This document shows positions 631 to 52,426 of a DNA stretch of 62,925 nt, one piece after another (position 1 is the stretch's first letter; every line of letters begins with the position of its first letter). This stretch comes from Solirubrobacterales bacterium. GTDB taxonomy: Bacteria; Actinomycetota; Thermoleophilia; Solirubrobacterales; 70-9. Location: assembly GCA_009379895.1 (NCBI GenBank), contig WHSW01000002.1:1-62925 (forward strand), given 5' to 3'. A program made the position numbers and the translations under genes. The notes below the pieces were generated by a model. That model was given only the letters and a program-made list of their open reading frames with translations. It was not told the DNA's origin and ran no database searches.

Positions 631-1478
631 GCGCCGATCGGATCACCTACGTCGGTCACGCGACGGCGCTGGTCGAGCTCGGCGGCGTTCGCCTGCTCAC
701 CGATCCGATGTTGCGCCGGCGGCTGCTGCACATCGCGCGCCACCCGCCCGAGCCCGACACGGGCGTCACGGAGGAGATCGACGCGGTCCTGCTCTCGCAT
801 CTGCACCCCGACCACCTCGACTTCCCCTCGCTGCGATCGATCGGCGCCGACACGCGCGTGATCGCGCCGCGCGGCGGCGCGCGGACGCTGGCGCGCCGCG
901 GCGTCCGAGCGGTGACCGAGCTCGCCCCGGGCGATTCGACGACCGTCGGCGCGCTCGAGGTCGCGGCGGTGCCCGCCAGCCACGACGCCCGCCGCTACCG
1001 GATCGGGCGCCACGTCGACGCGCTCGGGTTCGTGATCACGGGCGGGCGGCTCGCGGGCGGGCGCGGGGGCGAGGGGCTCGCGGGCCAGCAGGTCGGGGGC
1101 GAGGGGCTCGCGGGCGCACACCGCGTCTACTTCGCCGGCGACACCGACCTCTTCGACGAGATGGCGCAGATCGCCGACGGTGGGCTCGACGTCGCCATGC
1201 TGCCGATCGCCGGCTGGGGCCCGACGGTCGGTAAGGGTCATCTCGACCCGACGCGCGCCGCGGAGGCCGCGGCGATCCTGCGGCCCCGGGTGGCGATCCC
1301 GATCCACTGGGGGACCCTGTTTCGGATCGGGATCCTGCGCCGCCGACCGCACCTGGTCGAGCGGCCGGCGAGCCGCTTCACCGCCGAGCTCGCCGAGCTC
1401 GCGCCCGGGGTCGAGCCGCGGGTGCTCGCCCCCGGCGAGAGCTACGAGCTGGCGCAGCTCGACGAGCGCTCGGCGTAG
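627..1478 (+). CDS. Metallo-beta-lactamase-fold hydrolase (NAPE-PLD/UlaG-like)
   Basis: 283 residues. The opening GHATALVELGGVRLLTDP followed by the metal motif HLHPDH (H58, H60, D62, H63), a later FAGDTD and a final PIHWGT are the standard metal ligands of the UlaG/NAPE-PLD-type branch of metallo-beta-lactamase-fold hydrolases, which often act on phosphodiester bonds in lipids. It starts inside the stop of the upstream lipid-related membrane gene (ATGA), suggesting a shared membrane-lipid role; that is inference. A low-complexity insert (about residues 140-165) is encoded by a 21-nt repeat at 1065-1085 and 1095-1115. The 3' end overlaps the convergent HNH gene by 37 nt. Confidence 0.85.
   Translation: MSADRITYVGHATALVELGGVRLLTDPMLRRRLLHIARHPPEPDTGVTEEIDAVLLSHLHPDHLDFPSLRSIGADTRVIAPRGGARTLARRGVRAVTELAPGDSTTVGALEVAAVPASHDARRYRIGRHVDALGFVITGGRLAGGRGGEGLAGQQVGGEGLAGAHRVYFAGDTDLFDEMAQIADGGLDVAMLPIAGWGPTVGKGHLDPTRAAEAAAILRPRVAIPIHWGTLFRIGILRRRPHLVERPASRFTAELAELAPGVEPRVLAPGESYELAQLDERSA
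1065..1115 (+). repeat. In-frame 21-nt direct repeat, 30-nt period
   Basis: Two identical 21-nt copies (1065-1085 and 1095-1115) lie inside the metallo-hydrolase gene. The 30-nt period keeps frame and encodes the repeated GGEGLAG motif, an insertion between two beta strands. Confidence 0.9.
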
Positions 1479-2866
1479 CCGGCCGTCTCGGGAGTCCGAG
1501 GCCCCGAGCCCGCGACCAGCACCGCATCCACACACATGCCCAGGTCCACCTTCTCGCCGGTGCCAGTGAGCGTCGGCGCGCGGGCCGGCGGCAGCTCGGC
1601 CCGGTCGACGGGGGGTGGAAGGGGCGAGACGGGAATCGACGATCCGTCCGGGCGCGCGAAGCGCCGACGACCGTCGGCGTCCAGCGCCAGCGAGAAGCCG
1701 GCCTCGTGGACAAGGCGGTGGTGGTGGCGACAGAGCAGGACGAGGTTCGACAGGCCCGTCTCGCCACCGTGAGCCCAGTGGCGTATGTGGTGAGCATCGA
1801 CGAAGCGCCACCGCTCACAGCCCGGGAACTGACAGCGCCCATCTCGCGCCACGAGCGCGCGGCGGACCGAGGGCGGGATCGAGCGCCTTCGTCGACCGAC
1901 GGCGACCGGCTCGCCGTCGCGCTCTGAGATCGTGACCAGCGAGGAGTCGCACGCCAGCCTGCGCGCGGTCTCGGGCGAGATCGCGGGCCCGTCGGCGATC
2001 GCGCACGCGCCGCGCCCGGTCGCGGTGGCGCCGGGCTCGTCGGTGGCGAGCGTCTCGGCGTCGACGTGGACGAGCAACTGGTAGCGCTCGCCGCCCGGCA
2101 GACCCGTGGGCGGGCGCGCGAGCGCCGCCTCGGCGAGCGCGGCCAGCGACTCGGCGTTGGTCGGCGAGGGCACTGGGCGGGCGGCGGGAGGCTCGGGCGG
2201 TTCCGCGGAACCGCTCGGCCCAGTGGCAGCGAGCGGTCCCGCGGAACCGCCCTCGTCCTCCCGCCTCTCATAGACCGCATCGCGGGCGGACTCCAGCGCG
2301 CGCAGAAAGAGCGCCCCGTCCTCGGGCGAGAGCCTGGCGTCGAGGCGAAGGCAGCCGTCATCGTCGTCCCAGCACCAGCGCACGAAGGTTCGGCTCTGCG
2401 CCTCGTCGGCCTCGGCGGCGCTCACCCGGTGTGCGGCGCGGACCACCCGCTCGAGCTGGGCGGCGGTGGCGTGGCGGGCAAGCTCCAACAGCTCCGCCTC
2501 GCTCTCGCCGTCAGCGACCCAGGTCAGCGCCCGCACCTTCGAGTAGCTCAGCGCGCCGCTGGCAAACGCCGCACGGATCCGCGGCAGATCGGGGAGCGCC
2601 CGCGCGACGCGGACGTGCTCGCGCGCCGAGCGCGGGTTGAGCGCGCAGCGCCAGGCGATCCACTCCGAGATCGAGCGACAGCCCGTGTCGCCCCAGCCCT
2701 CGCGGCGGTCGAACTCGGCGACCAGCTCGAGCCAGCGCGCGCAGCCGGCGTTGATCTGGGCGGCCAGCGACTCGATCTCGCGCTCGATCAGCTCGAGGGG
2801 GACCGTGGACAGCGGCTCGGGAGAGTCTGCCGTCCGTTCCGTCCGTTCGGTAACGTCCCAGAACAT
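1442..2866 (-). CDS. DUF222 / HNH endonuclease domain protein (13E12-type), SOS-box controlled
   Basis: 474 residues. The N-terminal half is the helical DUF222 domain (EWIAWRCALNPRSAREHVRVARAL near residue 70). The C-terminal part carries a clear HNH motif: CQFPGCERWRFVDAHHIRHW, then GGETGLSNLVLLCRHHHRLVHE, with the paired Cys for a zinc ribbon. This is the actinobacterial 13E12-repeat family, often multicopy and in mycobacteria DNA-damage inducible. The ATG at 2866 lies inside a perfect GAAC-N4-GTTC LexA-type box (2861-2872), and a TACTAT -10 hexamer (2875-2880, minus strand) ends 8 nt before it, so the message may be leaderless. The role in the cell is not established. Its 3' end overlaps the convergent hydrolase gene. 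Confidence 0.88.
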   Translation of the reverse strand: MFWDVTERTERTADSPEPLSTVPLELIEREIESLAAQINAGCARWLELVAEFDRREGWGDTGCRSISEWIAWRCALNPRSAREHVRVARALPDLPRIRAAFASGALSYSKVRALTWVADGESEAELLELARHATAAQLERVVRAAHRVSAAEADEAQSRTFVRWCWDDDDGCLRLDARLSPEDGALFLRALESARDAVYERREDEGGSAGPLAATGPSGSAEPPEPPAARPVPSPTNAESLAALAEAALARPPTGLPGGERYQLLVHVDAETLATDEPGATATGRGACAIADGPAISPETARRLACDSSLVTISERDGEPVAVGRRRRSIPPSVRRALVARDGRCQFPGCERWRFVDAHHIRHWAHGGETGLSNLVLLCRHHHRLVHEAGFSLALDADGRRRFARPDGSSIPVSPLPPPVDRAELPPARAPTLTGTGEKVDLGMCVDAVLVAGSGPRTPETAGYAERSSSCASS

Positions 2867-2872
2867 ATGTTC
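2861..2872. promoter_or_regulatory. LexA/SOS box over the DUF222-HNH start codon
   Basis: GAACATATGTTC is a perfect 12-bp palindrome matching the Gram-positive LexA core GAAC-N4-GTTC. It covers the start codon and the expected transcription start just after the TACTAT -10 element. A bound repressor there would block transcription initiation. Confidence 0.75.
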
Positions 2873-3012
2873 GTATAGTAGATCGGCCCTCGGACGGAAA
2901 CTCCGGCGCGGCAGAGTTGCGACCCCACCTCAAACGTCGTGCTCTCGGGATCGATGAGGTTCGGCCCGAAGTCTCGACGAGAAGGGCCGGCGCCAATCCG
3001 AGACCGTGACGG

Positions 3013-25477: not shown

Positions 25478-28400
25478 GTGAGGCAGAGCCGTCGGGGGGC
25501 TTTCGTCTGGATCTCCGTCGTCGGCGCGGCGGCGTGCTCGCTTGCGCTGGTCGCCGGCGCGGCGGCCGCCGGCACCGGGCTGAAGCCATACGAGGTGTCG
25601 ATCACGGACGAGCGGGCCCTGAGCGTGCTCGCCGAGGCGGGTTTCGACACGGTCGAGGGCAGGACCGGCAACAAGCTCGAGATCGTCGCCACGCGCGACC
25701 AGGTGAGATCGCTCGAGAAGCAGGGCCTCGATCCGCAGCTGAAGACGCTCGGCGCCCGCGCCGCCGCCCGCGCCGGGTCGCCCAAGCCCGACGGCTCCTT
25801 CGACGTCTACCGGCCGTACTGGGACGACACCTGCAACGCCGACCACTGCTACGTCGGCCGCGACGAGGACGGCGACCCGCGCCAGACCCTGTTCCAGGAG
25901 ATGATGGCCCTCGCGGATCAGAACCGCGACATCGTCAAGCCCGAGATCATCGGTCACTCGCTCGGGGGCGCGCCGATCCTCGCGTTGCGGGTCACCCGCG
26001 ACGCACGCGAGCAGTCGAACCCCGACGGCTCCAAGCCGGCGGTCCTCTACAACGCCAACAACCACGCCCGCGAGTGGATCACCCCCGAGATGGTCCGCCG
26101 CCTCGCCCATCTCTACGTGGACAACTACGACCGCAGCGGCCCCGCCCTCGGCACCGACGGCGAGCCCGTCACCGACGACCGCGGTCGCCCGATCAAGGCC
26201 GGGACCCTGACCCGCCTGGTCAACGACCGCGAGCTCTGGTTCGTGGTCAGCTCCAACCCCGACGGCTACGACTTCACCTTCACGCCCGGCAACCGGCTGT
26301 GGCGCAAGAACCTGCGCGAGGTCAACGGCCAGCCCGGAATCCAGACGGGTGACGGCGTCGACCTGAACCGCAACTTCCCGACCTACTGGAACTACGACGA
26401 CGAGGGCTCCGCCACCGACCCCAGCGACGAGACCTACCGCGGCGCCGCGCCGCGCTCTGAGCCCGAGACGCGAGCGATGGACGACTTCGCCAGGCGGCTC
26501 GGCTTCGAGTTCATGATCAACTACCACTCGGCGGCCGAGCTCTTGCTCTACGGCCACGGGTTCCAGGTGCAGACCCCGAGCCCCGACGACGTCCTCTACC
26601 AGGCGCTCTCGGGGACCGATGTCGATCCGGCGATCGGCGGCCGCGAGCCGGGGGCCCCCGATCCCTACGACCCCGACGTCTCCTCGGAGCTCTACACCAC
26701 GAACGGCGAGACGACCGAGCACATGCACTCCCGGTACGGGACCCTTGCCTGGACACCGGAGATGGACGTCGCCGACCCCGACCGTGGCGGTTGTCTGACC
26801 ACCGACGACGACTGCGACGACCCCGGCGACCTGCTCAGCGACTTCATCTTCCAGGACTCCGACGCCGACCTCGAGGACGCGTTCGAGAAGAACGTCCCGT
26901 TCGCGCTCGACCTGGCCAAGTCGGCCGACGACCCCGACGACCCCGAGTCGCACCTGGGCAGGACCGCGCCGGACTTCCAGATCCAGCCGTTCCCGATCTC
27001 CTACGGAGACCCCCAGCTCGTCTCGGTGATCGCCAAGCGCGAGCTCGGGCCGCTGACCGTGCACTGGAAGGTCAACGGGGGCCCGGAGCAGAGCGCCCCG
27101 ACCACCGAGTTCGAAGGCGGCGAGCGCTACGGCCAGAACATGGACGTCTACTACCGCGAGGTCCGCGGCGAGGTGACCGGCGCGGTGCCGGGCGACGATG
27201 TCAGGGTCTGGTTCGAGGGCGGCCGCAAGCGCTCGCAGTCGTTCGACTACACGGTCGCCTCCGACACCGGCAACCGCGTGCTCATCCTGGCCGCGGAGGA
27301 CTACTCGGGCGAGAGCGACAGCCCGGAGTATGAGAGCGCGAACGGGCCGTTCTTCGCCGATTATTACGGCGACGCGCTCGAGGCGAACGGCATCGGCTCC
27401 GACGTCTACGACATCGACGCCCGCGGGCGCGCGGCCCCCGACCCGCTCGGGGTCCTGAGCCACTACGACGCGGTCATCTACTACACCGGTAACGACGTCG
27501 TGACCCGCGGGCACGGAATGGCCGGAGCGGGCTCGGACGTGGCGCGACTCGCCAACGACACGATCCTCAGCGTCCGCGACTTCATCAACGAGGGCGGCAA
27601 GCTGCTCTACACCGGCCAGTACGCGTCCGTGGCGCAACTCAACGGCCTGCTCTTCAGCGTCGAGGGGGAACCGCCGTTCTGCCCGCCGCGCGGCGATGCC
27701 CGCGCGGGAGCCTGCATCCCGCTGTCGAACGACTTCCTGCAGTACTACCTGGGCACGTACCAGTACTTCGACTCGGCGGGAGCCGTCGGCGCGGGCGACA
27801 TGGACGCGGCCTCCGCGCTCGGCTTCCACTTCTCCGGCGGCGACTTCGGGACCACCGAGTTCTCGCTCAACGGCTCCGGGACCGCCGACAACCAGGAGCA
27901 CGTGTACTCGATGCTGACCACCTCGAGCGTGCTGCCGCCCGACGAGTACCCGCTGTTCGCGGCGGAGCAGGCGGTGGCGCTCGAGGGGCCCAGCGCCTAC
28001 GACCCGGTGACCGGCGACTTCTACGCCGTGGCCCAGTCCGACGACGAGGCCTGGCAGCGACTGCGCAAGACGGTCGACCTCACCGACTTGAGCCCCGGCC
28101 AGGCGGCCGATCTCTCATTCAAGGTCTCCTACGACACCGAGCCGACGTACGACTACCTGATCGTCGAGGCGCACACGGTCGGGCAGGATGATTGGACGAC
28201 CCTGCCGGACGAGAACGGGCACACGTCGACCGACGTCGGGCAGTCGTGTGGCATCGACTGGCGCTCGCTGCACCCGTTCCTCGACCACTACCAGACGCCC
28301 GGCTCGTGCGAGCCGCAGGGGACGACCGGCGAGTGGAACGGCGCCACCGGCAACTCCGGCGGCTATGAGGATTGGAAGCTCGATCTCTCCCAGTACGCGG

Positions 28401-48764: not shown

Positions 48765-49786
48765 GTGGAGCAAGCGAACAGGGAGCCGATGGGTTTCGAG
48801 ACCGGGTCGAACGCTGGGAGGCGGGGTTCCTGTGGGAGGCGGCGACGCCCTCGTATCCGGCGCGGCGCCGCGAGCCCGAGCCCGACAGCGCGCTGCGGAC
48901 GCCGTTTCAGCGCGACCGCGACCGGATCGTGCACTCGAAGGCGTTTCGCCGCCTGAAGCACAAGACGCAGGTCTTCATCGCCCCCGAGGGCGATCACTAC
49001 CGAACCCGGCTCACCCACACGCTCGAGACCTGCTGCATCGCCCGCACGGTCGCCCGGGCGCTGGCCCTGAACGAGGACCTGACCGAGGCGGTCGGCCTCG
49101 GCCACGACCTCGGCCATCCGCCCTTCGGCCACATCGGAGAGGAGGCGCTCGACGAGGCGCTGCGCGAGCGCGGCGCCGAGGGCTTCAAGCACAACCGCCA
49201 CTCGCTGCGGGTGGTCGAGGTGCTCGAGCGCGAGGGTCGCGGCCTCAACCTCACCGAGCCCGTCCGCGACGGGATCCTCAACCACACCGGGCCCCAGCGC
49301 CCGGCGACGCTCGAGGGGCGGATCGTGCGCCTGGTCGACCGGGTCGCCTACATCAACCACGACATCGACGACGCCGTGCGCGCGGGGATCCTCGCCGAGG
49401 CGGACCTGCCGGCGACCGAGATCGAGCTGCTCGGCCCGACCGGCTCGGCGCGGATCGACACCCTGGCGCGCGACATCGTCGCCACCTCGCGCGAGCGCGG
49501 CGACATCGCGCAGTCCGACGACGTGGGCGGCGCGATGCTGCGCCTGCGCAAGTTCATGTTCGACCGCGTCTACCTGGGCCCCGAGGCGCGCGGCGAGCAC
49601 GAACGGGTGCGCCGCACGCTGAGCGGGCTCTTCGACCATTACCTCGACGACCCCGAGCTGGTCGGCGACGGCGCGGAGGACTCCGCACGGCTGCAGGAGG
49701 TCGTCGACTACATCGCCGGGATGACCGACCGGTTCGCGATCGCGACCTTCAGGCGCCTGTCGCTGCCCGAGGAGTCGCGCCTGTGA
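48761..49786 (+). CDS. dgt: Deoxyguanosinetriphosphate triphosphohydrolase-like HD-domain protein
   Basis: 341 residues. HD superfamily enzyme splitting dNTPs into nucleoside and triphosphate. Metal motif: RTRLTHTLETCCIARTVARALALNEDLTEAVGLGHDLGHPPFGHIGEEAL (about 83-132) with the His...HD, and FKHNRHSLRVVEVLE later. YPARRREPEPDSALRTPFQRDRDRIVHSKAFRRLKHKTQVF is the family start. The TTG at 48761 fits the TTGA overlap. The gene next to dnaG is a common actinobacterial arrangement; here dgt and dnaG overlap by GTGA. Confidence 0.94.
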   Translation: MSGASEQGADGFRDRVERWEAGFLWEAATPSYPARRREPEPDSALRTPFQRDRDRIVHSKAFRRLKHKTQVFIAPEGDHYRTRLTHTLETCCIARTVARALALNEDLTEAVGLGHDLGHPPFGHIGEEALDEALRERGAEGFKHNRHSLRVVEVLEREGRGLNLTEPVRDGILNHTGPQRPATLEGRIVRLVDRVAYINHDIDDAVRAGILAEADLPATEIELLGPTGSARIDTLARDIVATSRERGDIAQSDDVGGAMLRLRKFMFDRVYLGPEARGEHERVRRTLSGLFDHYLDDPELVGDGAEDSARLQEVVDYIAGMTDRFAIATFRRLSLPEESRL

Positions 49787-51603
49787 GTCGGTTCACGGGC
49801 GACAGCGTCGAGCGGGTCAAGGGGGCGAGCGACGTGGTCGAGGTGATCTCGGCCTACACGGACCTGCGGCGCGCCGGCGCGCGGTTCACCGGGCTGTGCC
49901 CGTTTCACGACGAGCGCACGCCCTCGTTCTCGGTCGACCCCCAGGAGAAGCTCTACCACTGCTTCGGCTGCGGGGTGGGGGGCGACGTGATCAAGTTCGT
50001 CGAGGAGAAGGAGGGGCTCTCGTTCCCCGACGCGGTCGAGGCGCTCGCCGACCGCTACGGCGTCGAGCTCGAGCGCGACCAGGAGGACCCGCGCGCCGAG
50101 GAGGCGCGCCGCAAGCGCGCGCGGCTCGCCGAGCTGCTCGAGCGGACGGCGGCCTTCTACGCCGGCTTCCTGCGCGACGCGCCGCAGGCGACGAAAGCGC
50201 GCAAGTACCTGGCGGACCGCGGGTTGAGCGCCGACGCGCTGGCGGAGTTCGGGGTCGGCTGCGCCCCGGGGCCGTGGGACACGATCCTGCTCCGCGGCCA
50301 GGGGGCGGGCTACTCGGTGGCCGAGATCGAGGCCGCCGGGCTGGTGCTCCGCAGCCAGAAGGGCACGGGCCACTACGACCGCTTCCGCTCGCGGATCGTG
50401 TTTCCGATCCGCGACGCGCGCGGCCGCGTGCAGGGCTTCGGGGCGCGGGCGCTGCGCCCCGATCAGAAGCCGAAGTACGTCAACTCCCCTGAGGGCGAGC
50501 TGTATCGCAAGCGGGCGACGCTGTACGGGATCGACCGTGCGCGCGCGGCGATCGCCCGCAACGGCCGCGCGCTGGTGGTCGAGGGCTACACGGACGTGAT
50601 CGCCTGCCATCAGGCCGGAATCCGCGACGCGGTGGCGGTGATGGGGACGGCGATCACGCCCGAGCAGGTCAAGCTGCTCTCGGGCTACGCCGAGGAGGCC
50701 GTGCTGGCCCTCGACGCCGATCGCGCGGGGCGCGAGGCGATGCTGCGCGCCCAGGGCGTGGCGGGCGGCAAGCGGCTGCGTCTGCGAGTGGCGCGGATGC
50801 CGGCCGGCAAGGACCCGGCCGATCTGCTCGCCGGCGGCGACGGCGGGGCCGCGACCGGGTTTCGGGAGGCGATCGAGGCGGCCGAGGAGCTGTCGGTGTT
50901 CCACGCCCGGACCCTGCTCGACGACGCCGACCTCGCCTCGCCGGCGGGGCGCGACCGGGCGCTCGACGAGGTGGTCGAGGTGATCGCCGCGATGCCCGAC
51001 TCGATCAGCCGCGAGGAGCTCCTGCGCGAGGTCGCGGACCGCCTCGACGCGGACCCCGGGCTGGTCTCGCGCCGGGTCGCGGGCGCGGGGCGGGGGGGAA
51101 CGCGGCGCGGCGCGCCGCGGCCGGCCGACTCCGAGCCGGGGGCACCTGAGGAGGGCGAGGGCGAGGGCGCGGCGGGGGCGCCGGGCGACGGCGAGGCGCC
51201 ACCGCCGCTGAGCGCCCGCGAGGGCCGCGAGCTGGCGCTGCTCGCGATGTGCGTCGGCTCGCCGACCGACGGTCGTGACTTCCTCGATCGGCTCACCGAC
51301 GAGCACTTCCACTCGCCGACCGCGGCCCGCGCGCGCGCCTGGCTGCGCAACCATCTGGACGACCCGATGCAGGGCCTGCCGCGCGAGGACGCGGCGCTGG
51401 TCGCCTACGTGACCCAGGTGGTGATGCGCTCCGAGCGCGAGCCTGCCGGCGCCGAGGCGATGGAGCTCAACTTCCTCTGGCTCGAGCTCGGCCGCGACGA
51501 CGACCGGATCTCCGCCGCCCGGGCGGAGGGCGGCGCCCCGCCGGTAGAGCTCCAGCGCCACCGCGCCGAGCTCACCGAGCGGATCGCGCGGACTTCGTCC
51601 TGA
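49783..51603 (+). CDS. dnaG: DNA primase
   Basis: 606 residues. It makes RNA primers at the replication fork. N-terminal CHC2 zinc finger LCPFHDERTPSFSVDPQEKLYHCFGCGVGGD (residues 38-68), catalytic core with FGARALRPDQKPKYVNSPE, TOPRIM motifs LVVEGYTDVIACHQAG and VLALDADRAG (near 305). The region 420-470 is a Gly/Ala/Glu/Pro-rich linker and the C-terminal helicase-interaction domain follows. GTG start overlaps the dgt stop (GTGA). Only 3 nt separate its stop from the SOS box of the next gene. Confidence 0.96.
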   Translation: MSRFTGDSVERVKGASDVVEVISAYTDLRRAGARFTGLCPFHDERTPSFSVDPQEKLYHCFGCGVGGDVIKFVEEKEGLSFPDAVEALADRYGVELERDQEDPRAEEARRKRARLAELLERTAAFYAGFLRDAPQATKARKYLADRGLSADALAEFGVGCAPGPWDTILLRGQGAGYSVAEIEAAGLVLRSQKGTGHYDRFRSRIVFPIRDARGRVQGFGARALRPDQKPKYVNSPEGELYRKRATLYGIDRARAAIARNGRALVVEGYTDVIACHQAGIRDAVAVMGTAITPEQVKLLSGYAEEAVLALDADRAGREAMLRAQGVAGGKRLRLRVARMPAGKDPADLLAGGDGGAATGFREAIEAAEELSVFHARTLLDDADLASPAGRDRALDEVVEVIAAMPDSISREELLREVADRLDADPGLVSRRVAGAGRGGTRRGAPRPADSEPGAPEEGEGEGAAGAPGDGEAPPPLSAREGRELALLAMCVGSPTDGRDFLDRLTDEHFHSPTAARARAWLRNHLDDPMQGLPREDAALVAYVTQVVMRSEREPAGAEAMELNFLWLELGRDDDRISAARAEGGAPPVELQRHRAELTERIARTSS

Positions 51604-51606
51604 CCA

Positions 51607-51618
51607 GAACACACGTTC
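51607..51618. promoter_or_regulatory. LexA/SOS box upstream of the HTH-HNH gene
   Basis: GAACACACGTTC fits the LexA core GAAC-N4-GTTC perfectly. Its centre is about 42 nt before the ATG at 51655; a weak GAGAAT -10 (51643-51648) ends 6 nt before that ATG, so the box would cover the -35 region. Confidence 0.7.
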
Positions 51619-51654
51619 GCTTTTTCCGTCCGACGCTGGCGGGAGAATTGGGCC

Positions 51655-52332
51655 ATGGATCGTGATCAGCTCAGGGGATGGCTTGGAGACGGGCTCTCGC
51701 TAGAGCAGATCGGGGCGATCGTCGGTCGCGATCCCTCGACCGTCGCCTACTGGTTGAAGAAGCATGGCCTGGTCGCCAACGGGCACGCGAAGCACGCCGC
51801 CAAGGGGGGACTGCCGCGGGACGAGCTCGAGACGCTGGTGAGGGCCGGCGAAACGCTGGCTGTCATCGCCGAGTCATTTGACGTCAGCATGCGCACCGTC
51901 CGTTATTGGATCGAGCGCTACGAGCTGCCCCGACCGCATTCGGTCCGTCGAACCGCGATCGAACGCGCCCTGGAGGAAGGTCGGCGCACCCTGTTCCTCG
52001 ATTGCGGGATCCATGGGTGGACCGTGTTCGTGCTCGAGAACAGCGGGCGTTCCCGATGCAGGGCTTGCCGCATGGAGCGCGTCGCCGAGTGGCGCCGTAG
52101 GACAAAGGCAAAGCTCGTCGCCGAGGCCGGCGGGGAGTGTCGGCTCTGCGGCTACAAGCGCTGCCAGGCGGCGCTCCAGTTCCATCACCTCGATCCGTCG
52201 AAGAAGTCGTTCGCGCTGTCGTTGCGCGGTGTGACGAGGTCGATTAAGGAGCTGCGGGCGGAGGCTGCGAAGTGCGCGCTGCTCTGCGCAAACTGCCACG
52301 CCGAGGTGGAAGGGGGCTTCTCGCAACTCTAG
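51655..52332 (+). CDS. HTH-HNH protein (homing-endonuclease or phage-type), SOS-box controlled
   Basis: 225 residues. Two tandem helix-turn-helix segments (LSLEQIGAIVGRDPSTVAYWLKKHGL at 15-40 and ETLAVIAESFDVSMRTVRYWIERYEL at 64-89) are followed by a Cys-rich segment (CRACRMERVAEWRRR near 139) and an HNH-type zinc nuclease motif CRLCGYKRCQAALQFHHLDPSKKSF...CALLCANCHAEVE. Proteins of this build occur in actinobacterial phages and as stand-alone genes; the target is unknown. The ATG follows the LexA-type box. The gene is adjacent to an unusual tRNA-Asn on the opposite strand. Confidence 0.8.
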   Translation: MDRDQLRGWLGDGLSLEQIGAIVGRDPSTVAYWLKKHGLVANGHAKHAAKGGLPRDELETLVRAGETLAVIAESFDVSMRTVRYWIERYELPRPHSVRRTAIERALEEGRRTLFLDCGIHGWTVFVLENSGRSRCRACRMERVAEWRRRTKAKLVAEAGGECRLCGYKRCQAALQFHHLDPSKKSFALSLRGVTRSIKELRAEAAKCALLCANCHAEVEGGFSQL

Positions 52333-52355
52333 AACCGATACAGAACTGTGGAAAG

Positions 52356-52426
52356 CTCTCCCGGGCGGATTCGAACCGCCATGACTTGATTAACAGTCAA
52401 GCATCTTGCCGTTAGATGACGGGAGA
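52356..52426 (-). tRNA. tRNA-Asn (GUU), short D-loop
   Basis: On the minus strand a cloverleaf forms: 7-bp acceptor (TCTCCCG/CGGGAGA), 4-bp D-stem ATCT/AGAT with a 7-nt loop, 5-bp anticodon stem CTTGA/TCAAG with loop CTGTTAA (anticodon GTT), 4-nt variable region, and 5-bp T-stem GGCGG/CCGCC with loop TTCGAAT. The U1-A72 pair and G73 suit Asn identity. CCA is not encoded. The 71-nt length and compact D-arm (ATCTAACGGCAAGAT) look more like Gln/Glu-type bodies than the usual actinobacterial tRNA-Asn. Confidence 0.85.

What the first reader, a model, noticed from the sequence alone, without database searches (positions are those of the whole stretch)
51607..52332. A second, unrelated HNH gene is also preceded by a LexA-type box
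GAACACACGTTC lies 37 nt before an HTH-HTH-HNH gene that shares no architecture with the DUF222 gene at 1442-2866. In this window the only two perfect GAAC-N4-GTTC sites I found are next to the only two HNH nuclease genes; recN, recO and mutM have none visible. This suggests an SOS-linked HNH regulon, perhaps of mobile origin, separate from core repair genes.
Basis: partly seen in the sequence, partly recalled or inferred. Interest (0 to 1): 0.6.

Follow-up and report, generated by a model that had tools for sequence, protein, structure and literature searches.

The report
SOS-controlled nuclease cassettes at tRNA genes
In this actinobacterium and its relatives, several unrelated DNA-cutting enzymes each sit beside one particular tRNA gene and appear to be switched on by DNA damage, as if each were a selfish unit that replaces an essential tRNA gene together with itself.

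Summary
The box is real: GAACACACGTTC at 51607-51618, 36 nt before a 225-aa HTH-HTH-HNH gene (51655-52332). It is the genome's LexA box: lexA carries GAACATGTGTTC at its own start. The window holds three perfect sites, not two; the third is inside a coding ORF. The box recurs at the start of 20 of 37 independent homologues (background 0.005 per window) and at DUF222-HNH, a second HTH-HNH, PDDEXK_5 and HTH/LAGLIDADG-like genes. So an SOS-linked nuclease set exists, but it shares the regulon with lexA, polymerase and splB-like genes and is not restricted to HNH.

All 41 homologue loci abut tRNA-Asn(GTT). PDDEXK_5 abuts tRNA-Ala(GGC) in 24 of 31 loci, the second HTH-HNH tRNA-Gln(CTG) in 27 of 30, a fourth family tRNA-Glu(TTC) in 11 of 12. 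tRNA-Asn is nearly always single-copy and lies just after dnaG. The nuclease is absent there, or nuclease plus tRNA is present in either orientation with their mutual arrangement kept, so they behave as one cassette. Most likely these are chromosomal, damage-induced, tRNA-gene-targeted homing-type nucleases carrying their own tRNA allele. Cleavage and mobility are inferred, not shown.

The parts
51607..51618 (+). LexA box GAACACACGTTC
   Evidence: same site at lexA; conserved at 20 of 37 homologues
51624..51632 (+). second promoter element TTCCGTCCG; starts 17 nt after the start of the box
   Evidence: present at about a third to a half of the boxed nuclease genes against 0.011 per window of background, with preferred spacings to the box
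51643..51648 (+). -10-like GAGAAT, 10 nt after TTCCGTCCG; would give a leaderless mRNA
   Evidence: sequence reading; inference only
51655..52332 (+). HTH-HTH-zinc ribbon-HNH nuclease gene, 225 aa
51655..51774 (+). first helix-turn-helix (aa 1-40)
51817..51939 (+). second helix-turn-helix (aa 55-95)
51988..52074 (+). zinc-ribbon-like segment with invariant C117, H120, C135, C138
52126..52314 (+). HNH domain: C162/C165, H177-H178, C211/C214, N213, H215 (C162, H177-H178, C211, C214 invariant in 29 homologues)
52355..52426 (-). tRNA-Asn(GTT) of the divergent 'T2' type, convergent with the nuclease gene, 22 nt after its stop
   Evidence: the only tRNA-Asn pattern match in the assembly
49783..51603 (+). 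dnaG, the conserved left neighbour of tRNA-Asn in the order
2861..2872 (.). LexA box GAACATATGTTC overlapping the start of the DUF222-HNH gene
   Evidence: conserved at 13 of 16 homologues
1442..2866 (-). DUF222-HNH gene (13E12-like), same promoter type, not beside a tRNA gene
2891..2899 (-). TTCCGTCCG element of the DUF222-HNH promoter

Best explanation
The gene is a free-standing homing-type nuclease whose address is the tRNA-Asn(GTT) gene, and it travels as a cassette together with a tRNA-Asn allele. LexA sits on a box at the promoter and keeps the gene off. DNA damage, through RecA, removes LexA, and a second shared promoter element probably adds activation. The protein then binds the tRNA-Asn gene of DNA that lacks the cassette with its two HTH modules and zinc ribbon and cuts it with the HNH domain. 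Repair by homologous recombination copies the cassette, nuclease plus a working tRNA-Asn that is less well recognised, into the cut locus just after dnaG. The nuclease later decays and is lost, sometimes leaving the altered tRNA. The same plan, with unrelated nucleases, serves tRNA-Ala(GGC), tRNA-Gln(CTG) and tRNA-Glu(TTC). Shown by sequence: the LexA box and its conservation, the tRNA tie, cassette behaviour, presence/absence at one locus, decay, tRNA differences. Inferred: LexA binding, DNA cleavage, target, resistance of the linked tRNA, and mobility.
For: LexA box: same site at lexA; perfect box at the start of 20/37 Asn-HNH, 20/31 PDDEXK_5, 20/25 Gln-HNH, 5/9 Glu-HTH and 13/16 DUF222 genes against 0.0047 per window; only 1 of 98 tRNA-Asn loci without the nuclease has a box. 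tRNA tie: 41/41 tRNA-Asn(GTT), 24/31 tRNA-Ala(GGC) with 6 more at other tRNAs, 27/30 tRNA-Gln(CTG), 11/12 tRNA-Glu(TTC), DUF222 16/17 none. Cassette: tRNA-Asn follows dnaG across the order; arrangements are 29 dnaG>HNH>tRNA>, 4 dnaG> <tRNA <HNH, 2 dnaG>HNH> <tRNA(T2) (the window and one more), 2 dnaG>tRNA(T2)> <HNH, and 60 without nuclease (57 with tRNA forward, 3 reversed); the HNH-tRNA relation is fixed within each tRNA type while orientation to dnaG flips. tRNA-Asn is single-copy in nearly every genome searched. Scars: a copy of the tRNA 5' end within 70 nt upstream (<=2 of 10 mismatches) in 25/50 linked against 6/98 unlinked loci, and an altered D-stem in 18/55 linked against 6/98 unlinked. 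Broken and partial copies exist. The nuclease tree mixes host families, f4 rows no better clustered than shuffled. Conserved HNH and DNA-binding modules; phage HNH endonuclease families match.
Against: No cleavage, LexA binding, induction or transfer has been measured. About two thirds of linked tRNA-Asn genes have an ordinary D-stem, so resistance through the tRNA cannot be the whole story. The statistics on tRNA variants are not corrected for relatedness. Some related groups (genera g31, g36) carry related nucleases, compatible with partly vertical descent. Roughly 46% of usable homologues lack a perfect box. No trace of the displaced ordinary tRNA-Asn was found in the window. Many genomes are incomplete MAGs.
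Confidence: 0.62

Rival explanations
1. A domesticated host gene: an SOS-induced repair or programmed-death nuclease, vertically inherited, that happens to sit in the quiet spot between dnaG and tRNA-Asn.
For: LexA control is typical of host repair genes; related carriers within genera g31 and g36 hold related copies; M. tuberculosis 13E12 HNH genes have been proposed as part of a repair system (PMC4181829).
Against: Patchy (68 of 232 genomes) with broken copies; four nuclease families are each tied to a different tRNA; the cassette flips as a unit; DUF222 genes with the same promoter are not near tRNAs.
Confidence: 0.17
2. An SOS-induced nuclease that cuts the tRNA itself (RNA), as a translation brake or abortive-infection device, with the linked variant tRNA as a protected supply.
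For: One isoacceptor per nuclease family; variant linked tRNAs.
Against: HNH and PD-(D/E)XK folds are mainly DNases (established knowledge); an RNA-cutting enzyme would not need to abut the gene; HTH modules point to DNA.
Confidence: 0.1
3. Remnants of prophages or islands integrated at tRNA genes, the nuclease being the last surviving gene.
For: tRNA genes are common integration sites; phages carry related HNH genes, mostly at 27-46% identity; the T2 tRNA resembles phage tRNA-Asn and tRNA-Gln.
Against: The whole insert is one gene in dozens of loci, with dnaG and the tRNA close on either side; I saw no integrase; nuclease and tRNA are kept in a fixed relation.
Confidence: 0.07
4. The box is a chance match and the neighbours are coincidental.
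For: In the window alone the excess is small.
Against: Conservation at positions -48 to 0 in 20 of 37 homologues, against 0.0047 per window.
Confidence: 0.02

Closest known systems
Free-standing homing endonucleases of T4-like phages, such as SegB in the phage tRNA region (cited in PMC6582537; PMC2988022; PMC13096335)
   Same: Stand-alone nuclease gene beside tRNA genes, thought to drive inheritance of the linked tRNA region by cut-and-copy repair.
   Different: Here in bacterial chromosomes, one nuclease family per single native tRNA gene, several unrelated folds, with LexA boxes.
13E12 (DUF222-HNH) genes of Mycobacterium tuberculosis in the LexA regulon (PMC4181829, PMC5005354)
   Same: HNH nuclease genes with a GAAC-N4-GTTC SOS box, described as having features of mobile elements. 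The DUF222 gene at 1442-2866 is of this kind.
   Different: The 51655 gene has no DUF222 domain and is tied to tRNA-Asn; DUF222 genes here are not next to tRNAs.
I-Ssp6803I-type PD-(D/E)XK homing endonucleases of group I introns in tRNA genes (own knowledge; Pfam PDDEXK_5)
   Same: Thought to be the same fold family as the tRNA-Ala-linked genes; target is a tRNA gene.
   Different: Here no intron was seen: the ORF abuts an ARAGORN-callable tRNA gene.
Synthetic cleave-and-rescue gene drives (PMC7951863)
   Same: Nuclease against an essential gene, carried with a functional version of that gene.
   Different: Those are engineered in animals; here the parallel is inferred from gene order and tRNA differences only.
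HNH genes inside horizontally acquired tRNA clusters of mycobacteria (PMC6582537)
   Same: HNH gene among tRNA genes in actinobacterial chromosomes.
   Different: Those are multi-tRNA, phage-like clusters with extra tRNAs; here the single native tRNA is involved.

Membership tests
LexA (SOS) regulon | SOS box identical in form to the one at lexA of the same genome | tested here: met
LexA (SOS) regulon | Box conserved at the promoter in orthologues | tested here: met
   20 of 37 distinct loci, background 0.0047 per window
LexA (SOS) regulon | LexA binding and induction by DNA damage | not testable with these tools
   needs EMSA and expression data
Free-standing homing endonuclease | Nuclease domain of a homing-endonuclease type with DNA-binding modules and conserved catalytic motif | tested here: met
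   HTH models over Pfam cut-offs; PF01844 below its cut-off (16.3 of 21.4 bits), but HNH motif conserved in 29 homologues and PHROG HNH families match
Free-standing homing endonuclease | Gene lies at or next to its presumed target, always the same one | tested here: met
   41 of 41 loci at tRNA-Asn(GTT)
Free-standing homing endonuclease | Presence/absence at a conserved locus, with decay and loss | tested here: met
   empty and occupied dnaG-tRNA-Asn loci, partial and broken copies
Free-standing homing endonuclease | Horizontal spread: gene tree discordant with host tree | tested here: inconclusive
   f4 rows scattered, f1 and f3 partly clustered, weak support
Free-standing homing endonuclease | Cleaves the cassette-free allele and is copied into it | not testable with these tools
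   needs cleavage and transfer assays
13E12 / DUF222-HNH family | DUF222 domain before HNH | tested here: not met
   absent from the 51655 protein, present in the 1442-2866 protein
Intron- or intein-borne homing endonuclease | ORF inside a group I intron or intein | tested here: not met
   ORF outside an ARAGORN-called tRNA gene; no Rfam intron search was run

The most novel reading that the evidence does not exclude
A natural cleave-and-rescue system: damage-induced nucleases, each aimed at one essential single-copy tRNA gene, spread with a recoded, cut-resistant copy of that tRNA (D-arm swaps, a tRNA-Asn with a long variable arm, a Gln-like or phage-like tRNA-Asn), so that cells with the old tRNA are converted or lose it.
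Probability: 0.35. Interest if true: 0.92.

Novelty: new variant of a known kind. Interest (0 to 1): 0.8.

Why it matters
Homing endonucleases beside tRNA genes are known from phages, and LexA-boxed HNH genes from mycobacteria. A bacterial lineage in which several unrelated nuclease families each own one tRNA gene, share one damage-responsive promoter plan and move as a unit with the tRNA would join the two. It would offer a natural parallel to synthetic cleave-and-rescue drives, a reason why some tRNA genes have odd D-arms or a long variable arm, and a direct test of why selfish nucleases would be put under SOS control.

Tried and rejected
The site at 27668 was set aside as coding-region chance. 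Foldseek against the PDB gave no significant match (best E 0.2; the model has pTM 0.55), so it is not used; sequence search of the PDB found mainly HTH parts and no HNH relative. Plasmids hold one weak match. No remnant of an ordinary tRNA-Asn was found around the window cassette. Acceptor-stem preference of linked tRNAs is weak (p 0.03, uncorrected) and is not relied on. Anticodon-stem variation also occurs in genera without the nuclease, so it is not used as evidence of resistance. Whether TTCCGTCCG is a PafBC site could not be settled: the passages read give no motif letters to compare. Literature searches found no description of tRNA-tied, LexA-boxed chromosomal nucleases, but the library lacks most subscription journals. 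My first dnaG comparison used a wrong reading frame and was redone.

Full report
1. The observation. The window is contig C222 of a fragmented MAG (4.09 Mb, 610 contigs, 88% complete) whose relatives with this gene are Solirubrobacterales. GAACACACGTTC lies at 51607-51618 and the HTH-HTH-HNH ORF runs from ATG 51655 to 52332. There are three perfect GAAC-N4-GTTC sites in the window, not two; the third (27668) lies within a long coding ORF. Three sites against 0.46 expected is weak evidence by itself.

2. It is the LexA box. The lexA gene of the same genome has GAACATGTGTTC just upstream. Of the 20 perfect sites in the genome (14 for the reversed control pattern), nine sit at gene starts: lexA, a Y-family polymerase, an SplB-like radical SAM gene, DUF222-HNH, this gene, a second HTH-HNH gene, a PDDEXK_5 nuclease, an HTH/LAGLIDADG-like ORF (frameshifted here) and a TnpB. 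The LAGLIDADG-like label rests on a motif-like stretch (MLYWAEG) that I read by eye; Pfam sees only the HTH part. In the complete relative G025 the box precedes, by sequence reading, lexA, recA, two Y-family polymerase genes, an splB-like gene, an HD-domain gene, the Asn-HNH orthologue and another HNH gene that lies beside tRNA-Gln(TTG). So core repair genes and nucleases share the box.

3. The box is conserved at the nuclease genes. Within -200 to +60 of the estimated start, a perfect box is found in 20 of 37 distinct Asn-HNH loci, 20 of 31 PDDEXK_5, 20 of 25 Gln-HNH, 5 of 9 Glu-HTH and 13 of 16 DUF222 loci, against 0.0047 per window elsewhere in the same loci. A second element, [CT]TCC[GA]TCCG, occurs at 18/37, 11/31, 9/25, 1/9 and 8/16 of these promoters against 0.011 per window, at preferred distances from the box (15, 19, 26-27 or about -17). 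In the window all three copies of TTCCGTCCG lie next to the two boxes. At 51643-51648 a -10-like GAGAAT ends six bases before the ATG, which suggests a leaderless mRNA (inference).

4. The tRNA tie. ARAGORN finds tRNA-Asn(GTT) beside every one of 41 distinct homologue loci. PDDEXK_5 genes of the L003 type run into tRNA-Ala(GGC) (24 loci); other PDDEXK_5 genes lie at tRNA-Ala(TGC), tRNA-Thr(TGT) or tRNA-Arg(CCG); L002-type HTH-HNH genes lie at tRNA-Gln(CTG) (27 of 30, the other three being on short or cut stretches); L011-type genes at tRNA-Glu(TTC) (11 of 12). DUF222-HNH genes are not tRNA neighbours (16 of 17).

5. Nuclease and tRNA form a cassette. tRNA-Asn is single-copy in nearly all of the 193 genomes in which the pattern was found and lies right after dnaG across the order. 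The nuclease is found in 68 of 232 genomes. Where dnaG is in the fetched stretch, the arrangements are: 29 dnaG> HNH> tRNA>; 4 dnaG> <tRNA <HNH; 2 dnaG> HNH> <tRNA (the window and L079); 2 dnaG> tRNA> <HNH (L043, L062); and 60 without nuclease, 57 with the tRNA forward. The two convergent types are exactly those with a divergent 'T2' tRNA-Asn; all others are codirectional. Since nuclease and tRNA keep their mutual arrangement while flipping relative to dnaG, the tRNA goes with the nuclease.

6. Marks on the tRNA. A copy of the tRNA's own first ten bases, with at most two mismatches, lies within 70 nt upstream in 25 of 50 linked and 6 of 98 unlinked loci; often it supplies the nuclease's stop codon (TCCGGGGTAG). 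D-stem variants are found in 18 of 55 linked and 6 of 98 unlinked tRNA-Asn genes (p 3e-5, not corrected for relatedness). One linked tRNA-Asn (L042) and one unlinked relative (L162) have a long variable arm. The T2 type resembles phage tRNA-Asn and tRNA-Gln, and the window's copy matches an ordinary tRNA-Asn of the order at only 46 of 72 positions. Broken or partial nuclease copies remain at several loci.

7. The protein. Two HTH modules, a zinc-ribbon-like segment (invariant C117, H120, C135, C138) and an HNH domain with conserved CxxC pairs, HH, N and H, in 29 sequences; the homologues are 44-55% identical to the window protein. The PF01844 match alone is below Pfam's cut-off, but phage HNH families match strongly (PHROG 2255, 9e-28). 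AlphaFold2 gives confident separate domains (mean pLDDT 88, pTM 0.55). The tree mixes host families with weak support. At class level nearly all matches lie in this order, with three partial matches in another family.

8. Reading. The simplest account is a damage-induced homing-type nuclease aimed at the tRNA-Asn gene and carrying its own tRNA-Asn. Chromosomal location, one family per isoacceptor and the LexA box set it apart from phage homing endonucleases; lack of DUF222 and the tRNA tie set it apart from the known LexA-controlled 13E12 genes (PMC4181829, PMC5005354). Cleavage, resistance of linked tRNAs and mobility remain to be tested.

Noticed in passing
L012 (contig C388 of the same genome), box at 1501-1512, gene 265-1500 on the minus strand: A TnpB (RNA-guided nuclease) gene begins right at a perfect LexA box with a CGTCCGA-type element upstream, suggesting SOS control of a TnpB. 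Conservation was not tested.
   Followed up: partly
L003 and L080-L109: PDDEXK_5 nuclease ORFs run straight into tRNA-Ala(GGC) with 0-20 nt between the domain and the tRNA in most loci; others sit at tRNA-Thr(TGT), tRNA-Ala(TGC) or tRNA-Arg(CCG).
   Followed up: partly
L334 1140-2207 (relative G025): Another HTH-HNH gene with a LexA box at its start, beside tRNA-Gln(TTG).
   Followed up: partly
L042 / L161 (G025) and L162 / L175 (G026): tRNA-Asn(GTT) genes with a long, class-II-like variable arm.
   Followed up: no
window 2837-2845, 2891-2899, 51624-51632: TTCCGTCCG occurs only beside the two LexA-boxed nuclease genes in the window; CCGTCC-type forms also stand near the boxes of lexA, recA and an splB-like gene in G025. 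It may be the site of a second damage-responsive activator such as PafBC.
   Followed up: partly
L304 (G025): An HD-domain protein gene with GAACATGCGTTC and CCGTCCGA at its start, a possible further SOS gene.
   Followed up: no
L002 729-1499 and L011 870-1500: The second HTH-HNH gene and the Glu-linked gene of the window's own genome look frameshifted, either decayed or assembly errors.
   Followed up: no
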